Origin: Solirubrobacter deserti
GTDB lineage: Bacteria > Actinomycetota > Thermoleophilia > Solirubrobacterales > Solirubrobacteraceae
Length of the DNA: 64,000 nucleotides
Assembly: GCF_027587175.1 (NCBI RefSeq)
Contig: NZ_JAPCID010000028.1
Location: 1 to 64,000 of the forward strand
Direction: 5' to 3'
The notes under the pieces were generated by a model. The model was given only the letters and a program-made list of their open reading frames with translations. It made no database searches and was not told the origin of the DNA. Positions within the stretch are counted from its first letter, which is position 1. Each line of letters starts with the position of its first letter. The position numbers and the translations under genes were made by a program. Below, piece by piece: positions 31,054 to 47,445 of the stretch.

Positions 31054-31105
31054 TCCGCCGGACGACTTCGGACCGCATCGACCGCATAACATCGGCCGTG
31101 CACCC

Positions 31106-32375: not shown

Positions 32376-32388
32376 GCGCGCAGTCTGT

Positions 32389-32398
32389 CGGATACGCT
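32389..32398. promoter_or_regulatory. Overlapping divergent -10 elements
   Basis: CGGATACGCT holds TACGCT on the plus strand (towards TTG 32444) and TATCCG on the minus strand (13 bases before ATG 32375). The design is like that at 15133-15142. Confidence 0.35.
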
Positions 32399-32443
32399 GC
32401 GACCAGTGGCGGCGCCGCTTCAGGCGAACCCGAGAGGCGAGCC

Positions 32444-33268: not shown

Positions 33269-34129
33269 CGGCACGGAGGCGCGGGGCTTGACCGCCGAGA
33301 AGATCGTGAAGTGCTCCCATTGCCAGGTGGGGTCGAACTGCGTGCTGCGCACGTCGAAGTCCTTGAAGACCGCGAGCACCTGATCCGCTTCCGGCGTGCC
33401 GGGCGTGGCGTGGATCTCGCCCATCACGAGCGCGACGTCACGGATGCGCTCCGAGGCCGGCAGCACGTCGAACTCGCCGCCCTCGATGTCGACCTTGAGG
33501 ATGTCCACGTCGCCCGCGGCCAGCACCTCGTCGAGCGGGAACCCGGGCACCTCGACCTGCTCCCCGCCGCCGGTGTGCTCGGACAGGCGCGTCGAACCCG
33601 ACCAGCTCGCGCCGCCCTCGTGGAACACGACCGGGCCCGGGTGCGCGGTCACGGCGCCGAAGCGCAGCGTCACACCCGGGAACGATCCGACGTTGCGCTG
33701 CAGGCGCTTGAACACGGTGGGGCTCGCTTCGACGCCGGTGATCGGGACGCCGGGGTGACGCAGCGCGAAGAACAGGATCGAGACCCCGATGTTGCTGCCC
33801 AGGTCGACGATGCGGCGCGGCTGCAGCGCGACCGGGGCCGCGTACTCGGCCTCGACGAAGACCTCCTCGAACACCCGCATCGCGGCCCAGTCCGGGACCG
33901 TGAACCACGTCGGGCCCTGCGGTCCCCGCACGCGGATCCGCAGCGCCCAGCGCCACCACGGCAGGGCGAGCAGCACCGAGGCGGCGACGATCCACGCCGC
34001 CGACGGCTTGTCGGGCGCCACCGCCGCGGCCGCGCCGCGCCCGACCTCCACGCTGCGCTGCAGCGATGTCCCGAGACGCCGGTCGACCCGGAGCATCACG
34101 CGCTTGAGCGCGGTACGCAGCGACTCCAT
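33263..34129 (-). CDS. FkbM-family methyltransferase with N-terminal hydrophobic segment
   Basis: 288 residues. A hydrophobic stretch (AAWIVAASVLLALPWWRWAL) near 40-60 may anchor it to the membrane. The body has RIVDLGSNIGVSILFFALRHP, GVEASPTVFKRLQRNV and DILKVDIEGGEFDVLPAS. It is closely similar to the proteins at 36773 and 39645, with the same order of motifs, so these three are recent paralogues. ATG 34129 is set by TAGGCT ending 7 bases ahead; the TAG of that element is also the stop of the GT2 gene upstream. Confidence 0.85.
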   Translation of the reverse strand: MESLRTALKRVMLRVDRRLGTSLQRSVEVGRGAAAAVAPDKPSAAWIVAASVLLALPWWRWALRIRVRGPQGPTWFTVPDWAAMRVFEEVFVEAEYAAPVALQPRRIVDLGSNIGVSILFFALRHPGVPITGVEASPTVFKRLQRNVGSFPGVTLRFGAVTAHPGPVVFHEGGASWSGSTRLSEHTGGGEQVEVPGFPLDEVLAAGDVDILKVDIEGGEFDVLPASERIRDVALVMGEIHATPGTPEADQVLAVFKDFDVRSTQFDPTWQWEHFTIFSAVKPRASVPS

Positions 34130-34136
34130 GCGCTCG

Positions 34137-34142
34137 AGCCTA
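34137..34142 (-). promoter_or_regulatory. -10 element TAGGCT overlapping a stop codon
   Basis: On the minus strand TAGGCT lies 7 bases before ATG 34129. Its first three bases are the stop codon of the GT2 gene 34140-35156, as also seen at 2818-2823. Confidence 0.5.
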
Positions 34143-35156
34143 GACGGACGGAGCGCGGTCACCGCGCGCCGGGACGGTGAAGGGCGGCTCCCAGCGGACC
34201 GGATGGCCATAGACGACGCTGCCCTCGTACTCTCCCCGGCGCCGCTCGACGTGCCCGAGCAGCGAGGCCAGGCGCCGTTCGGTCACCGTCAGGTTCAGCT
34301 TGCCGGCTGCGCGGACCGCGGCATCGATGACCGTCGTGCCCACCTTGTAGATGCGTGGGCGGTCCGTCGCGACGAGAAACCAGCGCAGCAGCGGCCGGCG
34401 ATCGTCGAAGCGCTTCTGGATCTGGTCCTCGGTGATGACGGCGCGGTGCATGTGGTCGATCAGCCAGAAGGCGCGGCCCTGCGCGCGGCATTCGCGCCGG
34501 AACGCCTCATAGGAGCGGCTGTGCAGGTGCGTCGCGCTCAGCGCGCGGTCGAAGCGCCCGTACAGCCCGCACCGCTGCAGCCGCAGGCCGAGCTCCCAGT
34601 CGTAGTGGTAGGGGAGCACATAGCGGCCGCCGATGCCGTCCGCGGCCAGCAGCGCCTCGCGGTTGAGCGAGACGTTCCCGCCCCACAGGCCACGCAGTAC
34701 GGGCGCGCCCTCCTCCCACGACGCGCAGCGGTACTCGTAGACGTCGTGGTAGAGGAACGAGGTGAATGAGCCCGGTCCGCGCTTCTCGGGCTTCGGGGTG
34801 GGCATGTAGCCGACCACCACCAGACCCGGGTCGTCGGCCTGCTCGTGGTGACGGGCGTGACCGCTCACCAGGCCCGGGTCGGCCAGCACGTCGTCGTCGA
34901 TCACCAGCACGACCTCGCCCGTGGCCGCCTCGACCCCGGTCTGCTGCGCCTTCACCGCTCCGCTGTTCTCGATCCAGATCGGCCGCAGGCGCGGCTCGCT
35001 CTGGGCGAGCTCCCGGAGGTACTCGATCGAACCGTCGTCGTACCCGTCCACGACGACGACCAGCTCGTCGGTCGCCGGATCGTCGAGCAGCGGCCGCAGG
35101 ACCCGGTCGAGCAGGTCGCGCCGGTTGTAGGTCGCCATGACCACTGAGATGCCCAC
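34140..35156 (-). CDS. Glycosyltransferase family 2
   Basis: 338 residues: ISVVMATYNRRDLLDRVL, VVVDGYDDGSIEYL, LVIDDDVLADPGLV and a WDWELGLRL-like acceptor segment (YHYDWELGLRLQRCG) with GGNVSLNREALLAADG before it. A soluble GT-A enzyme for repeat-unit assembly. GTG 35156 lies 6 bases behind TAGACT on the minus strand (plus-strand AGTCTA, 35163-35168), so it should be leaderless. Confidence 0.86.
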   Translation of the reverse strand: MGISVVMATYNRRDLLDRVLRPLLDDPATDELVVVVDGYDDGSIEYLRELAQSEPRLRPIWIENSGAVKAQQTGVEAATGEVVLVIDDDVLADPGLVSGHARHHEQADDPGLVVVGYMPTPKPEKRGPGSFTSFLYHDVYEYRCASWEEGAPVLRGLWGGNVSLNREALLAADGIGGRYVLPYHYDWELGLRLQRCGLYGRFDRALSATHLHSRSYEAFRRECRAQGRAFWLIDHMHRAVITEDQIQKRFDDRRPLLRWFLVATDRPRIYKVGTTVIDAAVRAAGKLNLTVTERRLASLLGHVERRRGEYEGSVVYGHPVRWEPPFTVPARGDRAPSV

Positions 35157-35162
35157 GGCGCG

Positions 35163-35168
35163 AGTCTA
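35163..35168 (-). promoter_or_regulatory. -10 element TAGACT of a leaderless promoter
   Basis: Six bases separate it from GTG 35156 on the minus strand. Facing it on the plus strand, TACTCT at 35213-35218 may serve the flippase gene with a leader of about 60 bases. Confidence 0.45.
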
Positions 35169-35284
35169 CTGGCGCGGTCGAGCGCCATCGGCAGGCCGTT
35201 CACACGCGCTTTGTACTCTCGTTCCGTCGCCGAACCGACCCCGCACTCGCCCCCGACTGGTTCGGCCGTGGAAAGACCCTGCCG

Positions 35285-36754
35285 ATGACGGGGATCGAAC
35301 CACCGTTGGGGAGCGGGGACTCGGTCCAGGAGCTCCGGCGGCGCGCGTTCACCGGCGTGCTCGCGATCGCGCTGCGCAGCTTGGCCATTCGAGGGATGGG
35401 GCTGGCGGCGAGCGTCGTGCTGGCGCGCGAGCTCACCCCTACCGACTTCGGCCTGGCGGCCTTCGGGCTGAGCATCGTCGGCATCGGCGCTTTCTTCACG
35501 GCGGGAGGCATCGGCGCGGCACTGATCCAGCAGGAGCGGGAGCCGACCAAGCTGCAGCTGCAGGCGGTGTTCGGCTTTCAGTTGGCGGTCGCGCTCGTGG
35601 TCGCGGTGGGGACGTTCGCGATCGGCGCGCCGCTCGGGCAGGCGGGCCTGATCGCGGGGATCATGGCCTTCTCGCTGCCGGTCGACGTGATGCGCTCGGC
35701 GCCCGCGGTGATGACGCAGCGCGAGCTCCGGTTCGGGCCGATGGTGCGCGCCGAGGTGGGCGAGATGCTCGTCTACAACGTCGTCGCCGTCGTGCTCGTC
35801 CTGCTCGGCGCCGGCGTGTGGTCGCTGACCGCCGCGGTGATGTGTCGCGCCGTGGCCGGCACGGTGCTGTTGGTGCTCGCCACCGGGATCGGCGTGCCGC
35901 GCCCGCGCTGGTCATGGGGCACCGTCAAGCCGATGCTGCGCTTCGGGGCGACCCTGCAGGCGATCGACTTCGTCAACCAGTTCCGGGCCCAGGGTCTGAA
36001 CTTCACCACGGCGGGCGTCGCCGGCGTGTCGTCGCTGGGCTACCTCGACTTCACGATGCGCGTCCTGCAGCCGCTGCTGTTGTTGTTCGACGCGGTCGGG
36101 CGCGTGGCGTTCCCCGCCGTCGCCGGGCTGCTTCGCGCCGGTGACGACCCGCGCCCGATGCTCGAGAAGGGCCTGCGCGTGGCCTTCGGCGCGACCGGTC
36201 TGGGCGTCGTCACGCTCGCCTCGGCGACCCCGGCGCTCGTGCCCAGCGTCTTCGGCCCGCAGTGGGTCCCGGTGATCGAGATCGTGCCCTGGTGCCTGTT
36301 CGCGCTGCTGCTCTCGAGCCCGATCGTGACCTGTACCGGTGCGTACCTGACCGCGATCAACCAGGTGGGGCTGGTGCTGCGCAGCACGATCCTGTACTCG
36401 ATCGCGTGGGCCGCGGTCGGGCTCGCGCTGCTGCCCTCCTACGGCGCGGTCGCGATCGCGATCGGCTGGGCGGTGGCGGGCGTCGTGGATTCCGTCTACC
36501 TCACGCGCGCACTGCGCTCGCGGCTGCCGTCGGTGCGCATCGTGCACAGCGCGGCGCCGACGGTCCTGATCGCCGCGCTGGTCGCGCCGATCGGCTGGCT
36601 GATCGAGTCAGCGATGGGACCGACGCTGCTCGCCGCCGCCGCGGCGGCGGTCTCCGCGGCCGTCCTGTACACCCTGCTGCTCGGGCTCGTGCGCCGCGAG
36701 ATGGTGCTCGAGGGCTGGACGATCTTCCGGCGGATCGTGTTGCGGCGGGGCTGA
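35285..36754 (+). CDS. Wzx-type polysaccharide flippase
   Basis: 489 residues with about 12-14 membrane helices, of the MOP superfamily (polysaccharide biosynthesis/lipopolysaccharide exporter type). The N-terminus RRRAFTGVLAIALRSLAIRG, VLARELTPTDFGLAAFGLSI and ALIQQE are typical. It should flip lipid-linked repeat units to the outer face of the membrane for the Wzy-like protein at 23295. It starts at ATG 35285 behind a leader of roughly 65 bases. Confidence 0.88.
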   Translation: MTGIEPPLGSGDSVQELRRRAFTGVLAIALRSLAIRGMGLAASVVLARELTPTDFGLAAFGLSIVGIGAFFTAGGIGAALIQQEREPTKLQLQAVFGFQLAVALVVAVGTFAIGAPLGQAGLIAGIMAFSLPVDVMRSAPAVMTQRELRFGPMVRAEVGEMLVYNVVAVVLVLLGAGVWSLTAAVMCRAVAGTVLLVLATGIGVPRPRWSWGTVKPMLRFGATLQAIDFVNQFRAQGLNFTTAGVAGVSSLGYLDFTMRVLQPLLLLFDAVGRVAFPAVAGLLRAGDDPRPMLEKGLRVAFGATGLGVVTLASATPALVPSVFGPQWVPVIEIVPWCLFALLLSSPIVTCTGAYLTAINQVGLVLRSTILYSIAWAAVGLALLPSYGAVAIAIGWAVAGVVDSVYLTRALRSRLPSVRIVHSAAPTVLIAALVAPIGWLIESAMGPTLLAAAAAAVSAAVLYTLLLGLVRREMVLEGWTIFRRIVLRRG

Positions 36755-36759
36755 GAAGC

Positions 36760-36765
36760 TAGGCT
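36760..36765 (+). promoter_or_regulatory. -10 element TAGGCT of a leaderless promoter
   Basis: It ends 7 bases before ATG 36773 and sits in the 18-base gap behind the flippase stop. Confidence 0.5.
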
Positions 36766-36772
36766 CGCCGGC

Positions 36773-37648
36773 ATGGACAGCCTTGCCTCCGTGCTGGGTC
36801 GAGGCCTGGCCCTCGTCGACGCTCGCGCCGGGACCGACCTGGAGCGCACCGTGCGCGCGAGCGTCAAAGCTGCCCCGGCGCTCGCGCCCGACAGGCGAGC
36901 GCGGGCCCGCATGTTCCTCGCGGGCTGGCTGCTGGGCAGCCGCCGCGTCCGGCGGCCGCTCGCGGTTCGCGTCCGCGGGCCGTACGGCGAGCGCGAGTTC
37001 GTCCTCCCCGACAGCGTGGCGATGGCCGTGCTCGAGGAGGTGTTCAGCTGGAACGAGTACGCCGTCGACCTCCCGCATCCGCCCAGACGCATCCTGGACC
37101 TGGGCAGCAACGTCGGTGCGTCGATCCTGTTCTTCGCGCTCCGCTACCCCGAAGCGCAGATCGTGGGGGTGGAAGCGAGCCCGAAGCTGTTCGGCGTGCT
37201 GCGGCGCAACGTCGGGGACCTGCCCAACGTGACCCTGATCCAGGCTGCGGTCAGCTCCACCGACGAGCCGATCCGGTTCTTCGAGGGCAACTCCAGCTGG
37301 GAGGGGTCGACGCGGGTCAGCGGCTGGGTGCGCGAGGAGGCCGCGACCGAGGTTGCCGCGGTCACGCTCGACGAGTTGATCGCCGACGGCGGCGCCGACC
37401 TGGTCAAGATCGACATCGAGGGCGGTGAGTTCGACGTGCTCCCGGCCTCACGCCGGCTGGCGGAGGTGCCGGTGGTGCTGGGCGAGATCCACGCGGCGCC
37501 GGGGACGCCGGAGGCCGAAGCCGTGCTCGCGCTCTTCGAGGGCGCCGAGCTGGTGAGCACCGACCCCGGGCCGGCCAACAGCCAGTGGACGACGGTGTTC
37601 TCCGCGGTGCGGCGCGACCGCGTGCCCGCGGTCAGCGCGCGCGGCTGA
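36773..37648 (+). CDS. FkbM-family methyltransferase
   Basis: 291 residues, paralogue of the proteins at 33263 and 39645. The N-terminal helix region LERTVRASVKAAPALAP is followed by LAVRVRGPYGEREFVLPD, RILDLGSNVGASILFFALRYP, GVEASPKLFGVLRRNV and DLVKIDIEGGEFDVLPAS. Probably methylates a glycan sugar. The start is fixed by the leaderless promoter. The end overlaps the convergent GT4 gene by 17 bases. Confidence 0.85.
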   Translation: MDSLASVLGRGLALVDARAGTDLERTVRASVKAAPALAPDRRARARMFLAGWLLGSRRVRRPLAVRVRGPYGEREFVLPDSVAMAVLEEVFSWNEYAVDLPHPPRRILDLGSNVGASILFFALRYPEAQIVGVEASPKLFGVLRRNVGDLPNVTLIQAAVSSTDEPIRFFEGNSSWEGSTRVSGWVREEAATEVAAVTLDELIADGGADLVKIDIEGGEFDVLPASRRLAEVPVVLGEIHAAPGTPEAEAVLALFEGAELVSTDPGPANSQWTTVFSAVRRDRVPAVSARG

Positions 37649-38693
37649 CGTCCGCCATCACGTCGAGCACGCCGCGCGCGTTGCGGGCGGCGTCGAAGCG
37701 CTCGGCGGCCCGCGCGTGCCCCGCTCGGCCCAGCCGCGCGCGGAGCGCGGGGTCGAGCAGCCGCTCGATGGCCGCGCGGACGGCGTCGGTGTCGTTCGGC
37801 GCCGTCAGCAGTCCCGTCTCCCCGTCCGCGACCATCTCCGGGATCGCGCCGACGCGGGTGGAGACGACGGGCAGGCCGACGGCCATGGCCTCGAGCACCA
37901 CGTGTGGCGATGCGTCGGCCGCCGTGGGCAGCACGAACAGGTCGCAGTCGGCGTAGAGCTCGTGCAGCACGGCACTGCCGGGCCGGACGTCGTTGTGGAC
38001 GGTCACCCCGGCGCGCGGCGCAACCTGGCTCTGGGTGACGATGTGCACGTCGACGTCGAGTCCGTCGACGGCCCGCAGGAGCGTCTCTCCGCCCTTGCGG
38101 GCGAAGTTGCCCCCGACGAACAGCACGCGCGGGCGTTCCCGCGCCTCGCGGACCGGCGGCGCGGCAGGCACGCTCGTGCCCGCCGGGATCAGGCGGATGA
38201 CCGCCGGGTCGACGCCGTAGTCGTCGATCAGCGACGCGCGGACCCACTCGCTCCACGCCACCAAGCCCGCCGCCGAGCGCAGCGCGCCGGCGACGACCGC
38301 GCGCTTGGCCGCTTCCACCCGCCGCCCGCCGACCGCGTGGTCGTAGCCCACCGCCACCTCGTCGAGGTTGACGGGGGTGGCGTCGAGCGAGATGACGGTC
38401 GGCACCCGCCGCATCACGTCACGCGAGAACAGCGATGCGGTCTGCGTGTGGAACAGCAGCGCGTCCCATGGGCGCCGGTGCATCGCCAACAACCGGCGGG
38501 CGCGGAAGCTGGCGCGCAGCGACCAGTTCGAGCGCAGCCCCGGCAGGCGGCGCTCCACCAGCCCGCGCGGCGGGTAGGTCATCGCAAACCAGGACGCCGC
38601 GACGGTCGGATCGGCGGCCGCCGCCTCGCGCAGCAGCCGCTCGAAGGTCACGTGGCCGACGGTGTACTCGGTCACGAAGCCGAACTCAGGCAC
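37632..38693 (-). CDS. Glycosyltransferase family 4
   Basis: 353 residues, GT-B fold: GFVTEYTVGHVTFERLL at the start, SLDATPVNLDEVAVGYDHAV, WSEWVRASLIDDYGV, then RVLFVGGNFARKGG (donor loop) and SPHVVLEAMAVGLPVVSTRVGAI with the retaining E-x7-type motif. GTG 38693 overlaps the stop of the branching-enzyme gene by 8 bases, so the two are co-translated. Confidence 0.87.
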   Translation of the reverse strand: MPEFGFVTEYTVGHVTFERLLREAAAADPTVAASWFAMTYPPRGLVERRLPGLRSNWSLRASFRARRLLAMHRRPWDALLFHTQTASLFSRDVMRRVPTVISLDATPVNLDEVAVGYDHAVGGRRVEAAKRAVVAGALRSAAGLVAWSEWVRASLIDDYGVDPAVIRLIPAGTSVPAAPPVREARERPRVLFVGGNFARKGGETLLRAVDGLDVDVHIVTQSQVAPRAGVTVHNDVRPGSAVLHELYADCDLFVLPTAADASPHVVLEAMAVGLPVVSTRVGAIPEMVADGETGLLTAPNDTDAVRAAIERLLDPALRARLGRAGHARAAERFDAARNARGVLDVMADVSRAR

Positions 38694-39570
38694 TCAGGAG
38701 CTCCTCGTCGATCCGGTCGAGGATGCGGCTGTCGACCTCGTCGTGGAACTTGCGCGCGAACAGCTTCGCCCGTGACACGCCGCCGGCCTCGGAGGAGTTG
38801 CGGGCCGAGTCGGCGAGCCGCTCGAAGTCGTCGAGCGTGAACGTGTGCGGGTGAGCCGCGCCCAGGGTCCACTCCATGTGCCACAGATGCTCGCCGATCA
38901 CGACGCCGGAGCGCTCGCAGTTGTTGAGCGCCGTCTGCAGGTAGTGCTCGTCCACGGCCCAGACGTGGTGGTGGAAGCGCGGCACCTCAGGGTGCTCACG
39001 CGTGTAGTCCAGGATGGACTGGGCGGTCGCGCGGTCGAGCACCATGAAGGCCGAGCCCCCGTACGGGCGCACCCCCGCCGGGTAGGGCCGCGGGAGCGGG
39101 ATCCGGAAGCGGCGGCGGCGGATCGGCGTGTGCCAGTAGCGGATGCGCCACATGCCGCCGTCCGGGCCGTACACGTCCGACGGCATCGGCCAGGTCGCCG
39201 CGAAGGTCTGGCCGGCGTACGGCTCCAGGAAGTCGACGATCCGCTCCACGGGGCGCAGCAGGTAGTCCTGGCCGCTGAACAAGACGATGTGCTCGGGCGG
39301 CTCGGGCTCGTCGAGGATCCGCTGCAGCCCGCGCAGGTACGCCTCGACGGTGTTCCACGACGCCCACGGCGTCGACATCCGGTCGAGCAGGTGCAGGTGG
39401 GGATGCTCGGGCAGCGCCGCGCGGATCGCCGAGAACAGGGCCGGCTGCGTCTTGCGGTCGATGTGCAGATAGATGGAACTACGGGGCGAGAGCAGACGCC
39501 GCGCCTGGCGACCGAGCTGCTCCGGGCCGCGGTGCGCGAGAATCAAGAAGGCCACGGCGGGGCGGCTCAC
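38686..39570 (-). CDS. Core-2/I-branching beta-1,6-N-acetylglucosaminyltransferase family (GT14) protein
   Basis: 294 residues: AFLILAHRGPEQLGRQ, YLHIDRKTQ, WASWNTVEAYLRGLQ, LFSGQDYLLRPVERI and a C-terminal HMEWTLGAAHPHTFTLDDF, the order of motifs in PF02485. The animal relatives make beta-1,6 branches; bacterial ones are found in capsule loci and some are xylosyl- or GlcNAc-transferases. It may add a branch to the polysaccharide. GTG 39570 is preceded by TACGCT at a distance of 9 bases on the minus strand. Confidence 0.82.
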   Translation of the reverse strand: MSRPAVAFLILAHRGPEQLGRQARRLLSPRSSIYLHIDRKTQPALFSAIRAALPEHPHLHLLDRMSTPWASWNTVEAYLRGLQRILDEPEPPEHIVLFSGQDYLLRPVERIVDFLEPYAGQTFAATWPMPSDVYGPDGGMWRIRYWHTPIRRRRFRIPLPRPYPAGVRPYGGSAFMVLDRATAQSILDYTREHPEVPRFHHHVWAVDEHYLQTALNNCERSGVVIGEHLWHMEWTLGAAHPHTFTLDDFERLADSARNSSEAGGVSRAKLFARKFHDEVDSRILDRIDEELLSA

Positions 39571-39631
39571 GGGCGCGGAAGCGTAGCGCGCGCGGCTGGG
39601 AGGCTTCAGCGCATCCGCGCCGACCAGCCAA

Positions 39632-39637
39632 TAGGCT
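39632..39637 (+). promoter_or_regulatory. -10 element TAGGCT of a leaderless promoter
   Basis: It ends 7 bases before GTG 39645. It may drive both the FkbM gene and the coupled lasso-cluster nucleotidyltransferase gene behind it. Confidence 0.5.
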
Positions 39638-39644
39638 GCGCAGG

Positions 39645-40532
39645 GTGCGAGTGTCGGAGTCCAACGCCGTGTTCGAGCTGGTCCGCCGGATCGAGGCGAG
39701 GTCCGGCACCCGGATCGCCGCGGGGCTGCGCGCTGCGGTGCGCGTGGCGCGAGTGATGCCCGGCATGCGCGAGCGCGCGCGGATCGTGCTGGTGGGGCTG
39801 GCGCTTGGCACCCGCCGGGTCCGCCGCCCGCTCGCCGTGTACCTGCGCGGCCCCAGTGGGCGGCACCGCTTCCTGCTGCCGGACGTCGCGGCCCTGCGCG
39901 TCCTGGAAGAGGTGTTCTGCAACGGCGAGTACGCCATCACGCTGCCGCAGCCACCCGCCCGGGTCATCGACCTCGGCAGCAACGTCGGCGCGACGATCCT
40001 CTACTTCACGTGGCAGTTCCCGGGCTGTGAGGTCGTCGGCGTGGAGCCGAGCCCGTCGCTGTTCAAGGTCCTGGAGGCCAACGTCGGCGGCCTGCCGAAC
40101 GTGCGGCTCGTCAATGCCGCGGTCAGCGCCTCCACGGAGCCCGTCACGTTCTTCGAGGGTCTGGAGAGCTGGCAGGGCTCGACGATGGGAAGCGCGTGGG
40201 TCGACGAGGAGCACGCGGTCACGGTCGCAGCGGTCCAGCTGGACGACCTCATCGGCGAAGCGGGAGCGGACCTGCTCAAGATCGACATCGAAGGCGGCGA
40301 GTTCGACGTGCTGCCGGCGACGACGCGCCTGCGGGACGTGGTGAGCGTGTTCGGGGAGATCCACGCCGACCCGGACGACGAGCGCACCCGCGCGCTCCTG
40401 GCGCTGTTCGACGGCTATGACGTCACGAGCACGCCCCCGACGCCCGGGGCCACGCTGTGGCGGACCATGTTCTCGGCGGTCCGTGACGCCCGGGCGCTCC
40501 AGCCGTCCGCGGGCGCCACGCAGGCTCCGTGA
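39645..40532 (+). CDS. FkbM-family methyltransferase coupled to the lasso cluster
   Basis: 295 residues, third member of the close paralogue group: LAVYLRGPSGRHRFLLPD, VIDLGSNVGATILYFTWQFPG in two runs, GVEPSPSLFKVLEANV and DLLKIDIEGGEFDVLPAT. Its TGA overlaps the GTG of the nucleotidyltransferase gene (GTGA), so it is translated with the first lasso-cluster gene. It may belong to the polysaccharide locus like its paralogues, or be a tailoring enzyme of the peptide; sequence alone does not decide. Confidence 0.82.
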   Translation: MRVSESNAVFELVRRIEARSGTRIAAGLRAAVRVARVMPGMRERARIVLVGLALGTRRVRRPLAVYLRGPSGRHRFLLPDVAALRVLEEVFCNGEYAITLPQPPARVIDLGSNVGATILYFTWQFPGCEVVGVEPSPSLFKVLEANVGGLPNVRLVNAAVSASTEPVTFFEGLESWQGSTMGSAWVDEEHAVTVAAVQLDDLIGEAGADLLKIDIEGGEFDVLPATTRLRDVVSVFGEIHADPDDERTRALLALFDGYDVTSTPPTPGATLWRTMFSAVRDARALQPSAGATQAP

Positions 40533-41665
40533 GCGCCCATGCCGCCGAGTCCGAGCTCGCCCGCTGGGCGGTGAGCGCGCGCGCCGGCCGCGACCGCACC
40601 CGTGACCGCGCGCGCGGCTGGCTCGCGGACGCCGACCCGCGGCGGCTGGCCGCGGAGGTGACGCGGCTGGGGGTCGCGGGAGCGTCGGCTCCGAGGCTGC
40701 GCGAGCTGGCCGACGAGCGCTTCGCGGCGACGCTCGACGCCGAGCTCGCCGAAGTCCGGGCCATCTCCCAAGCGGCCGCCGCGCGCCAGCGGGTGGCGTC
40801 GATGGCGGTGCTCGCCGCGCTCGCCGCCCACGAAATCGCGGCCGTGCCGCTGAAGGGCGTGCTGATGGCCGAGCGCCTGTACGGCGATGCCGCTGCCCGC
40901 TATTCCTCGGACATCGACGTGCTCGTGCGTGCGCAGGATCTCCGGCCGGCGGTGGAGGTCGCGCGCGGGCTCGGGTACGGCGAGCCCACCGACCCGGTCG
41001 ATGCCTCCGGGCTCCCGCTGCTGCACTTCGCGCTCGACGGCGATCCCGCCCTGGAGCTGCACTGGCGCGTGCACTGGTTCGAGACGGACTTCGCGGCCCG
41101 CGCCCTCGCGCGCGCCGAGCCCGGGCCGGTGCTGCGCCGTGCCGACGAGCTGGCGATGCTGCTGCTGTTCTACGCGCGCGACGGGCTCACGGGGCTCCGT
41201 CAACCCGCTGACATCGCGGCCTGGTGGGATCGGTACGGGGAGGACGAGGTGCTCGCGGAGCTGCGGGCCGTCGCCGACGAGGCGCCCGCGCTGGCCGACG
41301 CGCTCAAGGCGGGCGCCGCGACCGCGGCGCGCACGGTCGCCACGCCGGACCCGTGGGACGGGCGCGGGGCCGTGACCTTCGCGGCACGGCTGGCGAACTG
41401 GCGCCTGGCCGGCTCCGAGGACCGGCTGCGCGCCGACGCGTCGCTCGTTGACATCGCGTTGGCGCCGCGGGGCGAAAAGCTGACCACGCTGCGGCGTCAC
41501 GCGCTCATCTCGCTGCCGGAGATGGAGGGCTGGCATCGACCCGTCGCGGGCGGCGTGGTGGGCCGCCGCATCGAGCAGATGACCCGTCCGGCCAAGCTCG
41601 GACTGCGGTGGCTGCAGGCGAGTGCGCGCGTCTTTCGCCGCACCGTCCGCTCTCACATCCGGTAA
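40529..41665 (+). CDS. Nucleotidyltransferase family protein (NTP_transf_5) of the lasso cluster
   Basis: 378 residues with the mark of this family, VPLKGVLMAERLYGD at about 106-120 and YSSDIDVLVRA at about 124-134; the Asp pair in DID binds metal. The rest is helical with HWRVHWFETDF. Members recur in RiPP clusters next to PqqD, B2 and HPr-kinase-like proteins, where they are suspected to nucleotidylate the peptide or a phosphate on it; this has not been settled. GTG 40529 overlaps the FkbM stop. It is followed after 41 bases by the B2 gene. Confidence 0.8.
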   Translation: MSAHAAESELARWAVSARAGRDRTRDRARGWLADADPRRLAAEVTRLGVAGASAPRLRELADERFAATLDAELAEVRAISQAAAARQRVASMAVLAALAAHEIAAVPLKGVLMAERLYGDAAARYSSDIDVLVRAQDLRPAVEVARGLGYGEPTDPVDASGLPLLHFALDGDPALELHWRVHWFETDFAARALARAEPGPVLRRADELAMLLLFYARDGLTGLRQPADIAAWWDRYGEDEVLAELRAVADEAPALADALKAGAATAARTVATPDPWDGRGAVTFAARLANWRLAGSEDRLRADASLVDIALAPRGEKLTTLRRHALISLPEMEGWHRPVAGGVVGRRIEQMTRPAKLGLRWLQASARVFRRTVRSHIR

Positions 41666-41706
41666 TTTGGGCGGCGTTGCCGATCGCCTCGGACCGCCCC
41701 GGACCC

Positions 41707-42138
41707 ATGAGGTCTGCCATTGAGGCGCCGCGTGCCGGTGGCCTCTCGACGCTCGCGAAGCTGGTCCTGGCGGGCGAGATCGTGGGCGTCTACGCCCGCG
41801 CCCGGTGGCTGCTCCGCAGCCACGACGCGCCGTCGACGCTCCAGCGCCTGCGCTCGCCGAGCCGCGGGCGCCGCGCCACCGGGCAGCCGCCCGCCGGGTT
41901 GGGCCGGCACCTGGCGTGGGCGACGGTCAAGGTGCTCGCCGTGCTCCCCGTCGACGACCGGTGCCTGCTGCAGTCGCTGGTCCTCGCGCGCCTGATGGCC
42001 GTGCGCGGGCTGGCCCACGAGGTCGTGTTCAGCGTCGCGAGCGGTGCGGGCTTCGAAGCCCACTGCTGGGTGGAGACGGGCGGGGCCGCGCTGCTGGAAC
42101 CGGGCGGGGACGCTCACATCGAGATCCTGCGCCTGTGA
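41707..42138 (+). CDS. Lasso peptide biosynthesis B2 protein (transglutaminase-like leader peptidase)
   Basis: 143 residues, the usual B2 size. Catalytic Cys86 lies in VDDRCLLQSLVLARL and His119 in FEAHCWVE, the pattern of Transglut_core3 leader peptidases. It should cut the leader from the precursor before cyclisation, guided by the separate RRE protein encoded at 43615. The frame is open from 41608, but ATG 41707 starts the family-like sequence (LSTLAKLVLAGEIVGVYAR). Its TGA overlaps the GTG of the exporter ATPase. TAATTT at 41663-41668, overlapping the previous stop codon, could be a -10 box. Confidence 0.88.
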   Translation: MRSAIEAPRAGGLSTLAKLVLAGEIVGVYARARWLLRSHDAPSTLQRLRSPSRGRRATGQPPAGLGRHLAWATVKVLAVLPVDDRCLLQSLVLARLMAVRGLAHEVVFSVASGAGFEAHCWVETGGAALLEPGGDAHIEILRL

Positions 42139-42791
42139 GTGACCTTCGAGCGCACGGCGTGCACAAGACCTGGCGCGGCGGCCCGACGGTGCTCGAGGGC
42201 GCTTCGCTGGACGTGCCCGCGGGGACCTCGACGCTGCTCACGGGGCGCAACGGCGCGGGCAAGACGACCCTGCTGCGCATCCTCGCCGGCCTGATCGGCG
42301 CCGACGCCGGGGAGGTCCGGTACGGCGACCTGGACCCCGAGCGTTCGGCGACCGACTATCGGCGCCGGATGGCGTACCTCGGCGTCGTCTCGGCGGGGCT
42401 GTACCCGCGCTTGAAGGTCCGCCACCATCTCGACCTGTGGGCGCGGCTGGCGTACCTGTCCGCGGCCGAGCAGGACGCGCGCACCGCCGAGATGGTGGAG
42501 GCGTTCGCCCTGCGCGAGCTGCTCGACCGCCGCCCGGATCGCATGTCCATGGGCCAGCGCCAGCGCCTGCGGCTGGCCGGTACGTTCCTCCACGGGCCCG
42601 AGCTCGTGCTCCTCGACGAGCCCGCGAACTCGCTCGACGACGTCGGCCTGGAGCTGCTGCGCACGATGGTGGCCCGCACGCGCGCGTCGGGCGGCGTGCT
42701 CGTCTGGGCGCAGCCGTTCGGCGAGGGCGCGCACGGCATCGACTTCGACGCGCACTGGGTGCTGGAGGGTGGGAAGCTGGTGCCGGCATGA
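42135..42791 (+). CDS. ABC exporter ATPase of the lasso cluster
   Basis: 218 residues: Walker A GRNGAGKTT at 37-45, a signature of unusual form MSMGQRQR near 136 (normally LSGGQ), Walker B LVLLDEPAN near 157 and a final switch-like WAQP. It is of the small CcmA-like ATPase type, paired with the permease that it overlaps by ATGA. Together they probably export the mature lasso peptide and give self-immunity. Confidence 0.85.
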   Translation: MSDLRAHGVHKTWRGGPTVLEGASLDVPAGTSTLLTGRNGAGKTTLLRILAGLIGADAGEVRYGDLDPERSATDYRRRMAYLGVVSAGLYPRLKVRHHLDLWARLAYLSAAEQDARTAEMVEAFALRELLDRRPDRMSMGQRQRLRLAGTFLHGPELVLLDEPANSLDDVGLELLRTMVARTRASGGVLVWAQPFGEGAHGIDFDAHWVLEGGKLVPA

Positions 42792-43594
42792 GCCGGGCGG
42801 CGTGGCGGGCCACACAGGCGATGGTCCTGCGGGACCTGCGGATCCTGCTCTCGTACCGCTTCCGCTGGATCTCGATCCTGCTCGGCCCGGCGGTGTTCGT
42901 CGTGCTCTTCTACTACGTGTCGCGGCTCGTCGTCGTCGAGTCCGTCGGGTCCTCGGACGGCTACTTCTCGTTCGTGATCACCGGCATGGCCGGGCTGGCC
43001 GTGCTCACCGCCGCCGTGTCCGAGGTGTCCACGACGCTGCGCAACGAGCAGATCGCGGGCACGCTCGAGCGCCTGGCGACGTCCGCCTTCGGGCCCCTGC
43101 GCGCGTGCGTGGCCATGACGGTGTACCCCGTGTTGCAGGCCATGGTCGTGGGCATGGTGACGATCCTGATGGGGATGGCGATCGGCAACCTGCGTCCCGG
43201 GCTCCCGGAGCTCGTGGCGGCCGTGCCCGCGCTGGCGCTCGTCGCCTTCGCGTTCGCGCCACTGGGGCTGCTGGCCGCGGCCCTCACCTTCGTCGTGCGC
43301 CAGGCGACGATGGGGGTGACGCTCATGATCACCGTCTTCTCCGTGGTCGCCGGCGTGTACTTCCCCATCTCGCTGCTGCCGGAGTGGATCCGCTGGACGT
43401 CGGACGTGCAGCCCTTCACCCCGGCCGTCGGCATCCTGCGGCACCTGCTGGCGACCTCCCCGCTGGAGGGGTCCGTCTGGGGCGACGCCGCGCGGCTCGC
43501 CGCGTTCACCGTGGTATTGCTGCCCCTGAGCCTGATCGCGCTCCGGGCCGCGCTCGCGCACGCCCGCGCGCGCGGCACAATGACCGAATATTAA
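42788..43594 (+). CDS. ABC-2/CcmB-like exporter permease of the lasso cluster
   Basis: 268 residues with six hydrophobic segments. Family-like elements are RDLRILLSYRFRWISILLGP at the start, TTLRNEQIAGTLERLATSAF in the first cytoplasmic loop and PISLLPEWIRWTSDVQPFTPAV near the end, all typical of ABC-2 permeases. ATG 42788 is coupled to the ATPase. It differs from the fused PCAT/LasD exporters of many proteobacterial lasso clusters. Confidence 0.83.
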   Translation: MSRAAWRATQAMVLRDLRILLSYRFRWISILLGPAVFVVLFYYVSRLVVVESVGSSDGYFSFVITGMAGLAVLTAAVSEVSTTLRNEQIAGTLERLATSAFGPLRACVAMTVYPVLQAMVVGMVTILMGMAIGNLRPGLPELVAAVPALALVAFAFAPLGLLAAALTFVVRQATMGVTLMITVFSVVAGVYFPISLLPEWIRWTSDVQPFTPAVGILRHLLATSPLEGSVWGDAARLAAFTVVLLPLSLIALRAALAHARARGTMTEY

Positions 43595-43614
43595 AGGCGC
43601 CGGAGACCTTGTCT

Positions 43615-43899
43615 TTGACCGATCCCCTCGTTCGGAACGTGTCCATCCCGGAGCACGTCGTCTTCCGCTCGTTCGCGAGTGAGACCGTCGTGCTCAACCT
43701 GCAGACGCAGAAGTTCCACGGGCTCAACGCCTCGGCCGGGCGGATGGTGGAGGTGCTCGGCCGTGAGAAGTCCGTCGGCGCGGCGCTCACGGAGATCGCG
43801 CGCGACTTCGAGCGCCCCGAGGCGGAGATCGAGCCGTACCTGCTCGAGTTCGTGGAGACCATGCTCGAGCGCGGACTGCTCGTCGTCACGGATGGTTGA
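43615..43899 (+). CDS. PqqD-family RRE protein (lasso B1)
   Basis: About 94 residues: FRSFASETVVLNLQTQKFHGLN, split by the typical beta-turn, then VEVLGREKSVGAALTEIARDF and VETMLERGLLV. This is the winged-helix PqqD fold that binds the precursor leader and presents it to the B2 peptidase and the cyclase. There is no ATG; TTG 43615 lies 9 bases behind GGAG (43602-43605) and TTG 43609 is an alternative. The end overlaps the kinase gene by 8 bases. Confidence 0.87.
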   Translation: MTDPLVRNVSIPEHVVFRSFASETVVLNLQTQKFHGLNASAGRMVEVLGREKSVGAALTEIARDFERPEAEIEPYLLEFVETMLERGLLVVTDG

Positions 43900-44833
43900 C
43901 GCTCCCCGCGCCCGAGCGGGCCACGCGTTCGGGCTCGCGCTCGAGAGCGACTTCGACGTGCTCGGGCTCGTGCCCGACGCGGCCACGGAGCGGCTGCCGG
44001 AGTGCTCGCTGCGGCTCGTGGAGGGCGCGGCGCTGACCGCCGAGTGGGCCGGCGCGGGGGCGCGCTCGGTGCTGGTGGAGGGCGCCCCCGAGGCGCCCGC
44101 GGCGACGATCGACGTGCACGACGAGCTCGGGTATCGGCTCAGCGCGCGCTACTTCGGCACGTGCGTGGTGCGCCCGGGCGCGGCGCGCATCGACTGCGCG
44201 CCGCCGCCCGTGCCCGCCTGGCGCTGGCAGCGCTTCCTGGTCGGGCGCGTGCTGCCGTTCGCGGCGATGCACCGCGGGTACGAGATCCTGCACGCCAGCG
44301 CGGTGGCGCTCGACGGCCGCGTGCTGGCCTTCGCGGGCGCGCGCGGGTGGGGGAAGACGTCGCTGGCCGTCAACCTCGTGCTCGGCGCGGGCGCCCGGCT
44401 GGTGACCGACGACGTGCTCGTCCTGGAGGTGCGCGACGGCAGGCCGTTCGTGCACCCGGGCCTGGGCGTCACCAACCTGCGCCCGCAGGAGGAGCAGCGG
44501 CTCGGGGCCGCGACCGCGCAGCTGGGGGACCGCCTCGGTCGCACGGGGCAGACCAAGTCCCATTACACCGTCGCCCGCGAGTCCCGTGCGCTTCCACTCG
44601 CTCGGCTGCACCTGCTCGGCGGCGGGGACGAGGACGCCGCGGTCATCCGGCCGGCGCGGGTGACCCCGGTGCAGCTGCTCGGCAATGCGTTCCTGGTCGG
44701 GGCGCGCGAGCCGGCCTCCTTGGCGCACCTGCTCGCGACGTGCGGAACGGTGGCCGAGACCGTCGAGATCGTGGAGGTCGCGCGGGGCCTCGTGGAAGGC
44801 CCCGCGGAGCTCGCCACCCGCCTGGCGGCATGA
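43892..44833 (+). CDS. HPr kinase/phosphorylase-like lasso peptide kinase
   Basis: 313 residues. The C-terminal two thirds have the HprK fold: ILHASAVALDGRVLAFAG in two runs, P-loop GARGWGKTSLAV near 149-160, LVTDDVLVLE and TNLRPQ. The N-terminal part is a beta-rich domain. In the paeninodin family such kinases phosphorylate the C-terminal Ser of the lasso precursor; the precursor here also ends in Ser. It is not the classical HprK of sugar regulation, since no HPr signature helix follows and it lies inside a RiPP cluster. It overlaps the PqqD gene and, by ATGA, the cyclase gene. Confidence 0.84.
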   Translation: MVDAPRARAGHAFGLALESDFDVLGLVPDAATERLPECSLRLVEGAALTAEWAGAGARSVLVEGAPEAPAATIDVHDELGYRLSARYFGTCVVRPGAARIDCAPPPVPAWRWQRFLVGRVLPFAAMHRGYEILHASAVALDGRVLAFAGARGWGKTSLAVNLVLGAGARLVTDDVLVLEVRDGRPFVHPGLGVTNLRPQEEQRLGAATAQLGDRLGRTGQTKSHYTVARESRALPLARLHLLGGGDEDAAVIRPARVTPVQLLGNAFLVGAREPASLAHLLATCGTVAETVEIVEVARGLVEGPAELATRLAA

Positions 44834-46527
44834 TCGCCGCGATCCTCGATCCCGGCGGGCGCCGCGCGGGGCCCGAGGCGGCGCTGCGACGGGCCGGGGC
44901 CACTGCGGTCGCCCGCTTCGGGGCGATGTGGCTCGGCTGGACCGGCGGACCGCCGCTGGAGGTCGACGGCGTGACGGTGCTCGTCGACGGGCCGGCCGGC
45001 GAGCGCGCCGCGTCCCTGCTCGCCGGGGCCGCGCGCGGGCGACCGCCGGCGCCCGAGGTCCCCACCGGCCTGGCCTGGGCCGCCGCCGAAGACCGCGGCG
45101 CCGCTGTCCGCGACCTCACCGGCGCCCGCCCGCTCTTCGTGCGCCGGGAGGGCGAGGTGACGTACCTCGCGTCCGAGGTGCGCGAGCTGCTCGCGCTGCT
45201 GCCGGGCGCGCCGGGCACCGACGATGAGGCCGCGGCCCTGTGGCTCGCGATGGAACCGCTCGGCCAGCGGACGCTGTACGCCGGCGTCGCGCCCGTCCCG
45301 GCGGGGCACTGGCGCGCGTTCGACGCGGCGAGCGCGCGGCGCTACTGGCAGCCGGCGCCGGAATCGCTGAGCCTGGGGCGCGAGGCCGCGGCGGAGCGGG
45401 TGTGGACCGCTCTGCGGGAGGCGGTCGGGCCGTGCGTGCGGGCGGCCGAACGGCCCGCGGTGCGCTTGAGCGGGGGCCTCGACTCGAGCGCCGTGCTCGC
45501 CGCGGCGATCGCCGAGGGGGTGGTGCCCGCGGCCGTCAGCACCGTGTTCCCGCAATATCCCGAGGCCGACGAGGCGGAGTTGATCGCCGCGGTGGCGGGA
45601 CAGCTGGGGGCGCCGTCGCGCACGTTCGCGGCCGGCCCGCGCGACCTGCTGGCCGACGGCGCCGCGTTCCTCGCGCGCTGGGGTGTGCCGCAGGAGTACC
45701 CCGGCCGCGGGCTGTTCCATCCGATGCTGGAGGCCGCGGCGGCGGCGCACGACGTGGTGCTCGACGGCGAGGGCGGTGACGAGCTGTTCGGGTGCGAGCC
45801 GTTCCTGCTCGCCGACCTCGTCCGCCACGGCCGGCTGGCCGCCGCGCGGCGGGTCGCGCACCGTCTCCCGGGCGCGCCCGAGCGGTTGCCGGCGCGTGCC
45901 TATCGCGTCATCGCGCGCCGCTGGGTGGCGGGACCGCTCGCACCGGCGCGCCTGCGTCCGCCGGCGCGGGTCGGCGCCGACCTCGACTGGTTCGCGGACG
46001 CGATGACGCCGCGCGCCCGTGCGGCGGTGCGGGCACGCCGGGCGCAGCTCGACTGGCGGTCGCGCCCAGGCCCCCGGTGGCTTGCCCGGCGGATCGCGCT
46101 GATCGTCACGCTCCCGGCCGAGGCGGGCTCGGCCGACTACCTGCGCCGCGTCACGGCCATGGCGGGCGTGTCCGGCGCCAGCCCGCTGACCGACCGGCGA
46201 CTGGTCGAGACCGTGCTCTCGCTGCCACCCGAGCACGCCTTCGATCGCCGCCGGGACAAGGAGCTGCTGCGGACCGCGCTCGCCGGGCACGTCCCGGACG
46301 TGGTCCGCCTGCGCGCGGAGAAGTCGCACTTCGGCGACGCCGTCCTCGACAACCTCGACCGGGCCGCGCTGCTCGAGCGGCTCACCCCGGACCTCGCGCC
46401 GTATCTCGACGTGGCGCGCGTGCGCCGCCAGGTGCAAGCCGGCCCTGACGCCCACCCCCGCGGCCGGGCCGGATGGATGTTCGAGAGCTGGCGCGCGGCG
46501 ATGCTCGCCACCTTCCTGACGCGCTGA
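44830..46527 (+). CDS. Asparagine-synthase-like lasso cyclase (C protein)
   Basis: 565 residues. The C-terminal synthetase domain has the PP-loop LSGGLDSSAVLAAAI at about 212-226, LDGEGGDELFG at about 311-321 and YLRRVTAMAGV. The N-terminal half is a glutaminase-like fold, but the nucleophile Cys2 of true asparagine synthetases is missing (it begins MIAAILDPGG). It should adenylate the side-chain carboxyl of the core Asp and close the macrolactam with the freed N-terminal Gly. The precursor gene follows 55 bases downstream. Confidence 0.9.
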   Translation: MIAAILDPGGRRAGPEAALRRAGATAVARFGAMWLGWTGGPPLEVDGVTVLVDGPAGERAASLLAGAARGRPPAPEVPTGLAWAAAEDRGAAVRDLTGARPLFVRREGEVTYLASEVRELLALLPGAPGTDDEAAALWLAMEPLGQRTLYAGVAPVPAGHWRAFDAASARRYWQPAPESLSLGREAAAERVWTALREAVGPCVRAAERPAVRLSGGLDSSAVLAAAIAEGVVPAAVSTVFPQYPEADEAELIAAVAGQLGAPSRTFAAGPRDLLADGAAFLARWGVPQEYPGRGLFHPMLEAAAAAHDVVLDGEGGDELFGCEPFLLADLVRHGRLAAARRVAHRLPGAPERLPARAYRVIARRWVAGPLAPARLRPPARVGADLDWFADAMTPRARAAVRARRAQLDWRSRPGPRWLARRIALIVTLPAEAGSADYLRRVTAMAGVSGASPLTDRRLVETVLSLPPEHAFDRRRDKELLRTALAGHVPDVVRLRAEKSHFGDAVLDNLDRAALLERLTPDLAPYLDVARVRRQVQAGPDAHPRGRAGWMFESWRAAMLATFLTR

Positions 46528-46546
46528 CCTCCTCCTTTTCTTCGTC

Positions 46547-46575
46547 TTGTCCCCGGGCGCCCGCTGACCCAGAAT
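46547..46575 (+). promoter_or_regulatory. Promoter of the lasso precursor gene
   Basis: TTGTCC (46547-46552) and CAGAAT (46570-46575) are 17 bases apart, each matching four of six consensus bases. The -10 ends 7 bases before GTG 46583, so the precursor would have a leaderless mRNA. No Shine-Dalgarno is visible before the GTG. A separate promoter would allow more precursor than enzyme. Confidence 0.45.
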
Positions 46576-46582
46576 CCGGGTC

Positions 46583-46735
46583 GTGAAGCACACCGACGAC
46601 AAGCCGACCTTCGAGATCCCGAAGGTCGTCGACTACGGCGATCTCGCCGAGATCACCGCGGGCCAGTCCTCTGGCTCCCGGCTCGACGCGACGTTCCCGA
46701 ACGGGACTCCGATCCCGAACCTCACCTTCTCCTAG
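46583..46735 (+). CDS. Lasso peptide precursor (A), 50 residues
   Basis: A short GTG-started gene. Leader residues 1-26 hold FEIPKVVDYGDLAEITA, which fits the lasso leader pattern (aromatic-x2-Pro ... Gly ... Leu/Ile-Thr) with the conserved Thr at position -2. The predicted core is residues 27-50 (24 residues): it begins GQSSGSRLD, so Gly1 and Asp9 can form a nine-member macrolactam ring; the tail contains FPNG, a TPIP turn and ends NLTFS. The C-terminal Ser matches the presence of the HPr-kinase-like protein. The tail Phe residues could plug the ring. There is no Cys, so it would be a class II lasso. All of this is prediction from sequence. Confidence 0.85.
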   Translation: MKHTDDKPTFEIPKVVDYGDLAEITAGQSSGSRLDATFPNGTPIPNLTFS

Positions 46736-46748
46736 GCGGGCGTGGGGG

Positions 46749-46770
46749 CCTCCCGCCCACGGGCGGGGGG
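46749..46770 (+). terminator. Hairpin terminator behind the lasso precursor
   Basis: CCTCCCGCC and GGCGGGGGG pair almost perfectly around a short loop, followed by CGCCTTTGCTT. It ends the precursor transcript 27 bases before the -10 of the LuxR gene. Confidence 0.55.
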
Positions 46771-46796
46771 CGCCTTTGCTTGCCGCTGGTCCCGGA

Positions 46797-46802
46797 TAGG
46801 CT
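46797..46802 (+). promoter_or_regulatory. -10 element TAGGCT of a leaderless promoter
   Basis: It ends 7 bases before GTG 46810; TTTGC at 46775-46779 may be a weak -35. Confidence 0.5.
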
Positions 46803-46809
46803 TGCGCCC

Positions 46810-47445
46810 GTGAACCGCGCTCCGCTGCGCATCGCCGTCATCGCCGAGGACGACGCGCAGCCGCGGATCGCGGCGGCGCTGTCCGCGTGGGGGCTCAGCC
46901 GCCCGCCCGCCACCCTCGACGACGCGGACGCGGTCATCGCCGAGCTGCGCGGCTCGGCCGGCGAGCAGCGCCGGCGCGGCAAGGTCGTCGTGGAAGCCGC
47001 GAGCGCGCCCGTGATCGCCGTCACGGATCTGAGCGCTCGCGTCGAGCTCGAGCGCCTGCTCGAGACAGGCCTGCGGGGCATCGTGCTCACGTCGCGCCTC
47101 GACGCGAGCCTCGGGCCGACGGTGTTCGCCGTCGCCGCCGGTCAGATCTGCTCGCCCGCCGAAGGGGAGGGCCGAGCCAGGCCGCGCGCGCTGACCCGCC
47201 GCGAGCGCGACGTGATGACCCTCGTCGTCATGGGCCTTTCCAACGCGGAGATCGCCCGCCGCCTGCACCTGGGCGAGACCACGGTCAAGAGCCACGTCGC
47301 GACGTCGCTGCGCAAGCTCGGGGTCCGTACGCGAGCCGAGGCCACGCAGCTGCTGCTCGACCCCGACGAGCGCGCCGGAGCCGGCGTGATCGCCCTGGGG
47401 GGGACGCTGGAACCGATCGACATCGACCTTCCGTTGCCTGAGTGA
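46810..47445 (+). CDS. LuxR-family transcriptional regulator
   Basis: 211 residues. The C-terminal helix-turn-helix is clear: LTRRERDVMTLVVMGLSNAEIARRLHLGETTVKSH (in two runs) and LRKLGVRTRAEA. The N-terminal 115 residues look like a degenerate receiver domain (IAVIAEDD at the start, VIAVTDLSARVE and GLRGIVLTSRLD later) and the usual phosphoacceptor Asp is not evident. It may be an orphan regulator of the lasso cluster that ends just upstream; this is by position only. Start fixed by the TAGGCT element. Confidence 0.78.
   Translation: MNRAPLRIAVIAEDDAQPRIAAALSAWGLSRPPATLDDADAVIAELRGSAGEQRRRGKVVVEAASAPVIAVTDLSARVELERLLETGLRGIVLTSRLDASLGPTVFAVAAGQICSPAEGEGRARPRALTRRERDVMTLVVMGLSNAEIARRLHLGETTVKSHVATSLRKLGVRTRAEATQLLLDPDERAGAGVIALGGTLEPIDIDLPLPE

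What the first reader, a model, noticed from the sequence alone, without database searches (positions are those of the whole stretch)
40529..46770. Lasso-peptide cluster with kinase, nucleotidyltransferase and two-gene exporter
Eight genes in one direction, mostly with 4-8 base overlaps: NTP_transf_5, B2 peptidase, CcmA-like ATPase, ABC-2 permease, PqqD/RRE, HPr-kinase-like protein, Asn-synthase-like cyclase and a 50-residue precursor. The combination of kinase and nucleotidyltransferase suggests a lasso peptide modified on its C-terminal Ser, perhaps beyond simple phosphorylation. The precursor lies last rather than first. I know of no described lasso peptide with this core.
Basis: partly seen in the sequence, partly recalled or inferred. 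Interest (0 to 1): 0.92.

Follow-up and report, generated by a model that had tools for sequence, protein, structure and literature searches.

The report
Kinase-tailored lasso peptide gene cluster
A soil Solirubrobacter carries a complete set of genes for making a small knotted ('lasso') peptide that is probably phosphorylated, and perhaps further decorated, on its last residue; the peptide sequence is new, but this type of cluster, with a kinase and a nucleotidyltransferase, has been described before.

Summary
In detail: seven co-directional enzyme genes and a 50-codon precursor at 40529-46735 in a Solirubrobacter genome (same locus in Solirubrobacter sp. CPCC 204708). Domain searches, the leader motif (F-17xxP-14xV-12xxxG-8xxxxxT-2) and a core GQSSGSRLDATFPNGTPIPNLTFS with Asp9 identify a split-B, 9-ring lasso peptide cluster. 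Kinase (His, Walker A, Asp-Asp) and nucleotidyltransferase (KG..R..DxD..H) motifs are intact; structure models give HprK/PEPCK and Pol-beta nucleotidyltransferase folds. The combination is not new: pseudomycoidin (psm), bsf and 'paeninodin-like' clusters have it, and PsmN-dependent hexosylation beyond phosphorylation is published. Related clusters occur in about a dozen Thermoleophilia genomes, commonly with the precursor behind the cyclase. The five nearest precursors share core G5, D9, T16-P17 and F23-[S/T]24, which makes Ser24 the best modification site and argues against Ser3. In four of the five, residues follow that Ser, so this kinase branch probably does not need a free C-terminus. New member of a known kind. 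Product, modification and bioactivity are untested.

The parts
40529..41665 (+). nucleotidyltransferase (PF14907, PsmN/BsfN-like role inferred), 378 aa
   Evidence: PF14907 E 7.8e-25; K109, G110, R124, D128, D130, H178 invariant in a 29-row alignment; model resembles Pol-beta-type nucleotidyltransferases
41707..42138 (+). B2 leader peptidase (transglutaminase-like Cys protease); alternative upstream GTG start at 41608
   Evidence: NF033537 lasso_biosyn_B2 60.6 bits against cut-off 33; Cys and His present; profile position 1 falls on ATG 41707
42135..42791 (+). exporter ATPase (ABC, CcmA-like)
   Evidence: PF00005 E 5.9e-27; next to the permease in most related clusters
42788..43594 (+). exporter permease (ABC-2 type)
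   Evidence: PF01061 E 1.2e-15
43609..43899 (+). B1 / RiPP recognition element (PqqD-like); alternative GTG start at 43639
   Evidence: PF05402 39.4 bits, cut-off 23.4
43892..44833 (+). HprK-like peptide kinase, 313 aa
   Evidence: His134, Walker A GARGWGKT 149-156, Asp173-Asp174 match the published H-G-G-G-K-S-D-D pattern of lasso kinases (PMC10368454); AlphaFold model pLDDT 91 matches PEPCK/HprK structures; tree
44830..46527 (+). lasso cyclase (Asn-synthetase-like), 565 aa; no Cys at position 2
   Evidence: PF00733 E 2.5e-36; lass_lactam_cya NF033535 E 2.8e-27, below its cut-off; sequence starts MIAAIL
46583..46735 (+). precursor peptide gene, GTG start: leader 46583-46660 (26 aa), core 46661-46732 GQSSGSRLDATFPNGTPIPNLTFS
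   Evidence: NF033521 lasso leader above cut-off; leader profile 34.4 vs 12.3 next best; related precursors
46748..46771 (+). terminator-like hairpin behind the precursor
   Evidence: 10 pairs, 9 GC; 61-nt fold -46.6 kcal/mol, z -4.1
39645..40532 (+). FkbM-family methyltransferase, 4-nt overlap with the nucleotidyltransferase; membership doubtful
   Evidence: TIGR01444 E 1.8e-23; absent from all related clusters, two further copies to the left in the same locus
46780..47445 (+). LuxR-type regulator behind the cluster; a link is not shown
   Evidence: PF00196 E 3.4e-17; no close copy at the matching site of the same-genus genomes

Best explanation
A complete, probably functional biosynthetic cluster for a kinase-tailored lasso peptide with a 9-residue ring. 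Proposed path: the 50-residue precursor is bound through its leader by the PqqD-like B1 protein (inferred from family); the HprK-like kinase phosphorylates Ser24, the last residue of the core (site inferred from conservation and from paeninodin/pseudomycoidin); B2 cuts between Ala(-1) and Gly1, one residue behind Thr(-2) (inferred from the leader motif); the Asn-synthetase-like cyclase joins the amino group of Gly1 to the side chain of Asp9 around the threaded tail (inferred); the PF14907 enzyme then acts on the phosphorylated end, adding a nucleotide- or sugar-derived group, as in PsmN-dependent hexosylation (inferred, the weakest step); the two-gene ABC exporter secretes the product (inferred). 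Predicted monoisotopic masses: lasso 2445.19, monophosphate 2525.16, monophosphate plus one hexose 2687.21 Da.
For: All class-defining parts present, with B2 and leader above curated cut-offs; leader F-17, P-14, V-12, G-8, T-2 at the canonical spacing and Asp at core position 9; precursor far above background. Kinase catalytic motif intact and HprK/PEPCK-type fold. Nucleotidyltransferase motifs invariant in a 29-row alignment; fold like MenT1, LnuA, ANT(2''), FKRP. The same gene set recurs in related Thermoleophilia clusters, and the kinase sits in a 13-row clade (100/98) whose members, where the contig is long enough to tell, come from lasso clusters. The five nearest precursors keep G5, D9, T16-P17, F23 and Ser/Thr24; two of them have no Ser/Thr in the ring (LQKDGGALD, GQANGHGLD), so at least there the kinase cannot act on a ring residue. 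Precedents: paeninodin, pseudomycoidin, bsf, LPP paper.
Against: No product or expression data. The cyclase scores below the curated cut-offs for lasso cyclases and has no well-supported nearest group in the tree. Four of the five nearest precursors continue past the conserved Ser, unlike paeninodin, and only 3 of 14 precursors in the kinase branch end in Ser/Thr. Thr16 is as conserved as Ser24 and is not excluded as the site. BsfK and LppK phosphorylate Ser3, and this core also has a Ser3. What the nucleotidyltransferase adds is unknown. The precursor lacks a visible ribosome-binding site.
Confidence: 0.72

Rival explanations
1. Lasso peptide as above, but the kinase phosphorylates a ring serine (Ser3, as BsfK and LppK do), not Ser24.
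For: Core has Ser3, Ser4, Ser6; BsfK (PMC10368454) and LppK (PMC13381572) are HprK-like enzymes that act on Ser3.
Against: Position 3 is S, A, Q, A, K, A in the window and its five nearest precursors; two of them have no hydroxyl in the ring at all.
Confidence: 0.12
2. Lasso peptide on which kinase and nucleotidyltransferase act as a self-protection or regulatory system and not as part of the exported product (for example reversible inactivation before export).
For: Nearest folds of the nucleotidyltransferase include antibiotic adenylyltransferases LnuA and ANT(2''); enzyme genes are translationally coupled with the exporter.
Against: Published lasso kinases act on the precursor before cyclisation (PMC9266682); the fold matches are weak (best E 2.8e-3) and say nothing about substrate.
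Confidence: 0.1
3. Not a lasso but a linear phosphorylated RiPP of the LPP kind, or a capsule-associated 'HprK-related' system.
For: RRE, HprK-like kinase and NTP transferase also define the LPP family; polysaccharide genes lie to the left; kinase has weak hits to HprK_rel_A.
Against: B2 and cyclase are present, B2 is over the curated lasso cut-off, leader and Asp9 fit a lasso precursor; LPP uses a signal-peptidase-like LppS, not seen here.
Confidence: 0.04
4. Decayed or silent cluster that makes nothing.
For: No expression data; same-genus genomes lack it at this site.
Against: All frames open, motifs intact, kinase and precursor identical in a second strain of the species, terminator behind the precursor.
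Confidence: 0.02

Closest known systems
Pseudomycoidin cluster (psm), Bacillus pseudomycoides
   Same: lasso cluster with HprK-like kinase PsmK and nucleotidyltransferase PsmN; Ser at the C-terminus (PMC9266682)
   Different: other phylum and core sequence; here the exporter is a separate ATPase and ABC-2 permease and the precursor is last; hexosylation not tested here; Psm sequences were not held, so no direct alignment
Paeninodin (pade) and relatives
   Same: HprK-like kinase with His-Lys-Asp-Asp motif, C-terminal Ser, split B1/B2, 9-residue ring ending in Asp (ring detail from memory)
   Different: relatives of the window cluster often carry residues after the conserved Ser; different core; no nucleotidyltransferase is mentioned for paeninodin in the review read
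bsf cluster of Bradymonas sediminis
   Same: A, B1, B2, C, D, K and N genes, 7 ORFs; N of unknown function (PMC10368454)
   Different: BsfK acts on Ser3, core ends in Asp, Ile at leader -2; here Thr at -2 and Ser at the end
LPP family (lppAKBSDN) of Bacillota
   Same: RRE + HprK-like kinase + NTP transferase + exporter (PMC13381572)
   Different: no cyclase, no B2; signal-peptidase-like leader peptidase

Membership tests
Lasso peptide biosynthetic cluster | precursor with canonical leader motif and Thr at -2 | tested here: met
   F-17, P-14, V-12, G-8, T-2; NF033521 21.6 bits vs cut-off 19; background test
Lasso peptide biosynthetic cluster | Asp/Glu at core position 7-9 and a small residue (usually Gly, Ala, Ser, Cys) at position 1 | tested here: met
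   Gly1 and Asp9; Asp9 invariant in the nearest five
Lasso peptide biosynthetic cluster | B2 transglutaminase-like peptidase | tested here: met
   NF033537 60.6 bits, cut-off 33; Cys and His aligned
Lasso peptide biosynthetic cluster | B1 / RRE of the PqqD family | tested here: met
   PF05402 over cut-off; lasso-specific models NF033536/NF033530 only below cut-off
Lasso peptide biosynthetic cluster | Asn-synthetase-like cyclase | tested here: met
   PF00733 E 2.5e-36; lasso model NF033535 95.6 bits is below its cut-off 525, an exception-type model
Lasso peptide biosynthetic cluster | threaded lactam product | not testable with these tools
   needs mass spectrometry and NMR
Kinase-tailored (paeninodin-like) lasso peptides | HprK-like kinase with H-GxxGxGK[ST]-DD motif | tested here: met
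   H134, G149, G152, G154, K155, T156, D173, D174; fold
Kinase-tailored (paeninodin-like) lasso peptides | Ser at the C-terminus of the core | tested here: met
   Ser24 is the last residue in the window; relatives vary
Kinase-tailored (paeninodin-like) lasso peptides | phosphorylation of that Ser | not testable with these tools
   inferred only
Pseudomycoidin-like (kinase + nucleotidyltransferase) | nucleotidyltransferase with intact motifs in the cluster | tested here: met
Pseudomycoidin-like (kinase + nucleotidyltransferase) | hexose on the phosphorylated Ser | not testable with these tools
   no product data
LPP family | signal-peptidase-like LppS and no cyclase or B2 of its own | tested here: not met
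   cyclase and B2 present

The most novel reading that the evidence does not exclude
A Thermoleophilia branch of lasso kinases recognises an internal or terminal F-[Ser/Thr] site about 15 residues behind the ring Asp, independent of a free C-terminus, and the coupled nucleotidyltransferase builds a phosphodiester-linked group there that differs from the hexoses of pseudomycoidin.
Probability: 0.2. Interest if true: 0.5.

Novelty: new member of a known kind. Interest (0 to 1): 0.32.

Why it matters
It extends kinase + nucleotidyltransferase lasso clusters to the deep actinobacterial class Thermoleophilia, gives a family of precursors with a conserved candidate site, and so offers a direct test of open questions from the pseudomycoidin and bsf work: what these nucleotidyltransferase-like enzymes add, and whether lasso kinases need a C-terminal Ser.

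Tried and rejected
The genome-contig scan with the kinase alignment returned only six loci, but gave the organism name. PDB sequence search of the nucleotidyltransferase found nothing useful. A strict sigma-70 promoter scan near the precursor found none; a weak TTGTCC-N17-CAGAAT reading by eye was not counted as evidence. FkbM methyltransferase as a ninth cluster gene: not supported, since no relative has it. LuxR neighbours in two same-genus genomes were at other sites. A test of the third B2 catalytic residue was inconclusive: that position varies in the whole branch. The pseudomycoidin paper and the 2025 iterative glycosylation paper were not held, so statements on pseudomycoidin rest on reviews. 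The cyclase tree could not place the window within a supported group. Searches with the close precursor family in 399 class and 232 order genomes added no further close member.
Full report
What is there. [quoted passage not shown] The best B2 start is ATG 41707, since the family profile begins exactly there; four junctions overlap by 4-8 nt. A strong hairpin with a T-rich tail follows the precursor. No RNA family or tRNA is found in the window.

Where it is. The genome is a Solirubrobacter: the kinase is identical to that of Solirubrobacter sp. CPCC 204708. To the left lies a polysaccharide locus (flippase, glycosyltransferases, FkbM methyltransferases), to the right a LuxR regulator, an alpha/beta hydrolase and the rpmG-secE-nusG-rpl-rpoBC genes. 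In five other species of the genus the rpmG-secE-nusG block (with the hydrolase in four) is conserved but the cluster genes are absent beside it, so the cluster is a variable element of the genus.

Is it a lasso cluster? The leader has F(-17), P(-14), V(-12), G(-8) and T(-2), the core has Gly1 and Asp9. With its own sequence left out of the profile, the precursor scores 34.4 while the second-best place in all six frames of the window scores 12.3 and ten shuffled windows reach at most 13.6. B2 and leader pass curated NCBIfam cut-offs. The cyclase lacks the Cys2 nucleophile of glutamine-dependent Asn synthetases (sequence; the role of Cys2 is established knowledge).

Kinase. Residues H134, G149/G152/G154, K155, T156, D173 and D174 match the pattern reported for lasso kinases. 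A model with mean pLDDT 91 matches PEPCK and HPr kinase structures, and the profile finds HPr kinase first among PDB sequences. In a tree of 60 kinases it falls in a 13-row clade (100/98) of Thermoleophilia kinases from lasso clusters, nearest to those of G203 and G110.

Nucleotidyltransferase. PF14907 E 7.8e-25. K109, G110, R124, D128, D130 and H178 are invariant in a 29-row alignment from these clusters. The model is confident for the catalytic half only (mean pLDDT 75 overall); its best structural neighbours are the nucleotidyltransferases MenT1, LnuA and ANT(2''), further down FKRP, all with weak E-values.

Where is the modification? The kinase clade gave 14 precursors from 11 clusters; only three end in Ser or Thr (window, L032, L040). 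So the pair kinase + nucleotidyltransferase does not predict a C-terminal Ser in this class. But the five precursors nearest to the window's share G5, D9, T16-P17, F23 and Ser/Thr24...LTFS (window)...LTFT (L032)...LTFSSTP and ...PSFSNH (both L115)...LTFSN (L039)...AFSLP (L114); L115's second precursor and L114 need a one-residue shift. Two of them have no hydroxyl residue in the ring. Hence Ser24 (or, less likely, Thr16) is the best site in the window, and Ser3, the site of BsfK and LppK, is unlikely. Because four of the five relatives continue past the Ser, this branch may not need a free C-terminus. That is inference from conservation only; a structural or target-binding role of F-S is not excluded. 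Precursor searches in 399 class and 232 order genomes found no further member of this close group.

What is known. Paeninodin and pseudomycoidin are phosphorylated on a C-terminal Ser; PsmN is needed for one or two hexoses on it (PMC9266682). The bsf cluster has both genes; BsfK acts on Ser3 and BsfN is unexplained (PMC10368454). Ruminal Butyrivibrio clusters have both (PMC7533575). A 2026 paper calls HprK kinases and NTP transferases typical secondary modification enzymes of paeninodin-like lasso clusters (PMC13381572). I found no paper on a lasso peptide of Solirubrobacter (two papers that hold both words, one mention of each), within the library held. The cluster is a new member of a known kind, with a new core.

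Shown: gene content, motifs, predicted folds, conservation, distribution. Inferred: lasso formation, Ser24 phosphorylation, further decoration, export, order of steps.

Noticed in passing
L137 4067-9089, L138 6735-11538, L140 6550-11392: Actinomycetota clusters with RRE, B2-type peptidase, a peptide with lasso-type leader (YEAPRLMVYGRVEEITL, core HGRGHPPFGNSGPPGCNPSDGC...NNPQHRP, no Asp/Glu at 7-9), HprK-like kinase, PF14907-like enzyme and ABC exporter but no cyclase nearby; two of the genomes (96-99% complete) hold no full-length Asn-synthase match at all. Looks like a cyclase-free phospho-RiPP that uses a lasso-type peptidase.
   Followed up: partly
L034, L035, L037, L041, L042: Lasso clusters with two HprK-like kinases; the second copies form their own clade (6 rows, 99/93) apart from the 13-row clade of the window's kinase, so two specialised kinases per cluster.
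   Followed up: partly
L190 3513-3971 (L183 1456-1914): A lasso-type leader (YEGPQIKDYGTVAELTA) in front of a roughly 120-residue Ser/Thr/Pro/Gly-rich protein that ends in LPYTG, a hydrophobic stretch and a basic tail, like a sortase-anchored protein; no biosynthetic genes on the 6 kb contig.
   Followed up: partly
L034 8713-8931, L181, L182: Several precursors per genome with cores of the type [A/G]-x-G-x-x-G-x-E-D-G-x-G-K, some far from the main cluster, so probably several substrates for one enzyme set.
   Followed up: no
window 39645-40532: FkbM-type methyltransferase translationally coupled (4 nt) to the nucleotidyltransferase gene though absent from related clusters; could be a local recruit as a tailoring enzyme.
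   Followed up: partly
window 22000-40500: Large polysaccharide locus with several FkbM methyltransferases next to the ribosomal/rpoBC block; not at this site in other species of the genus.
   Followed up: no
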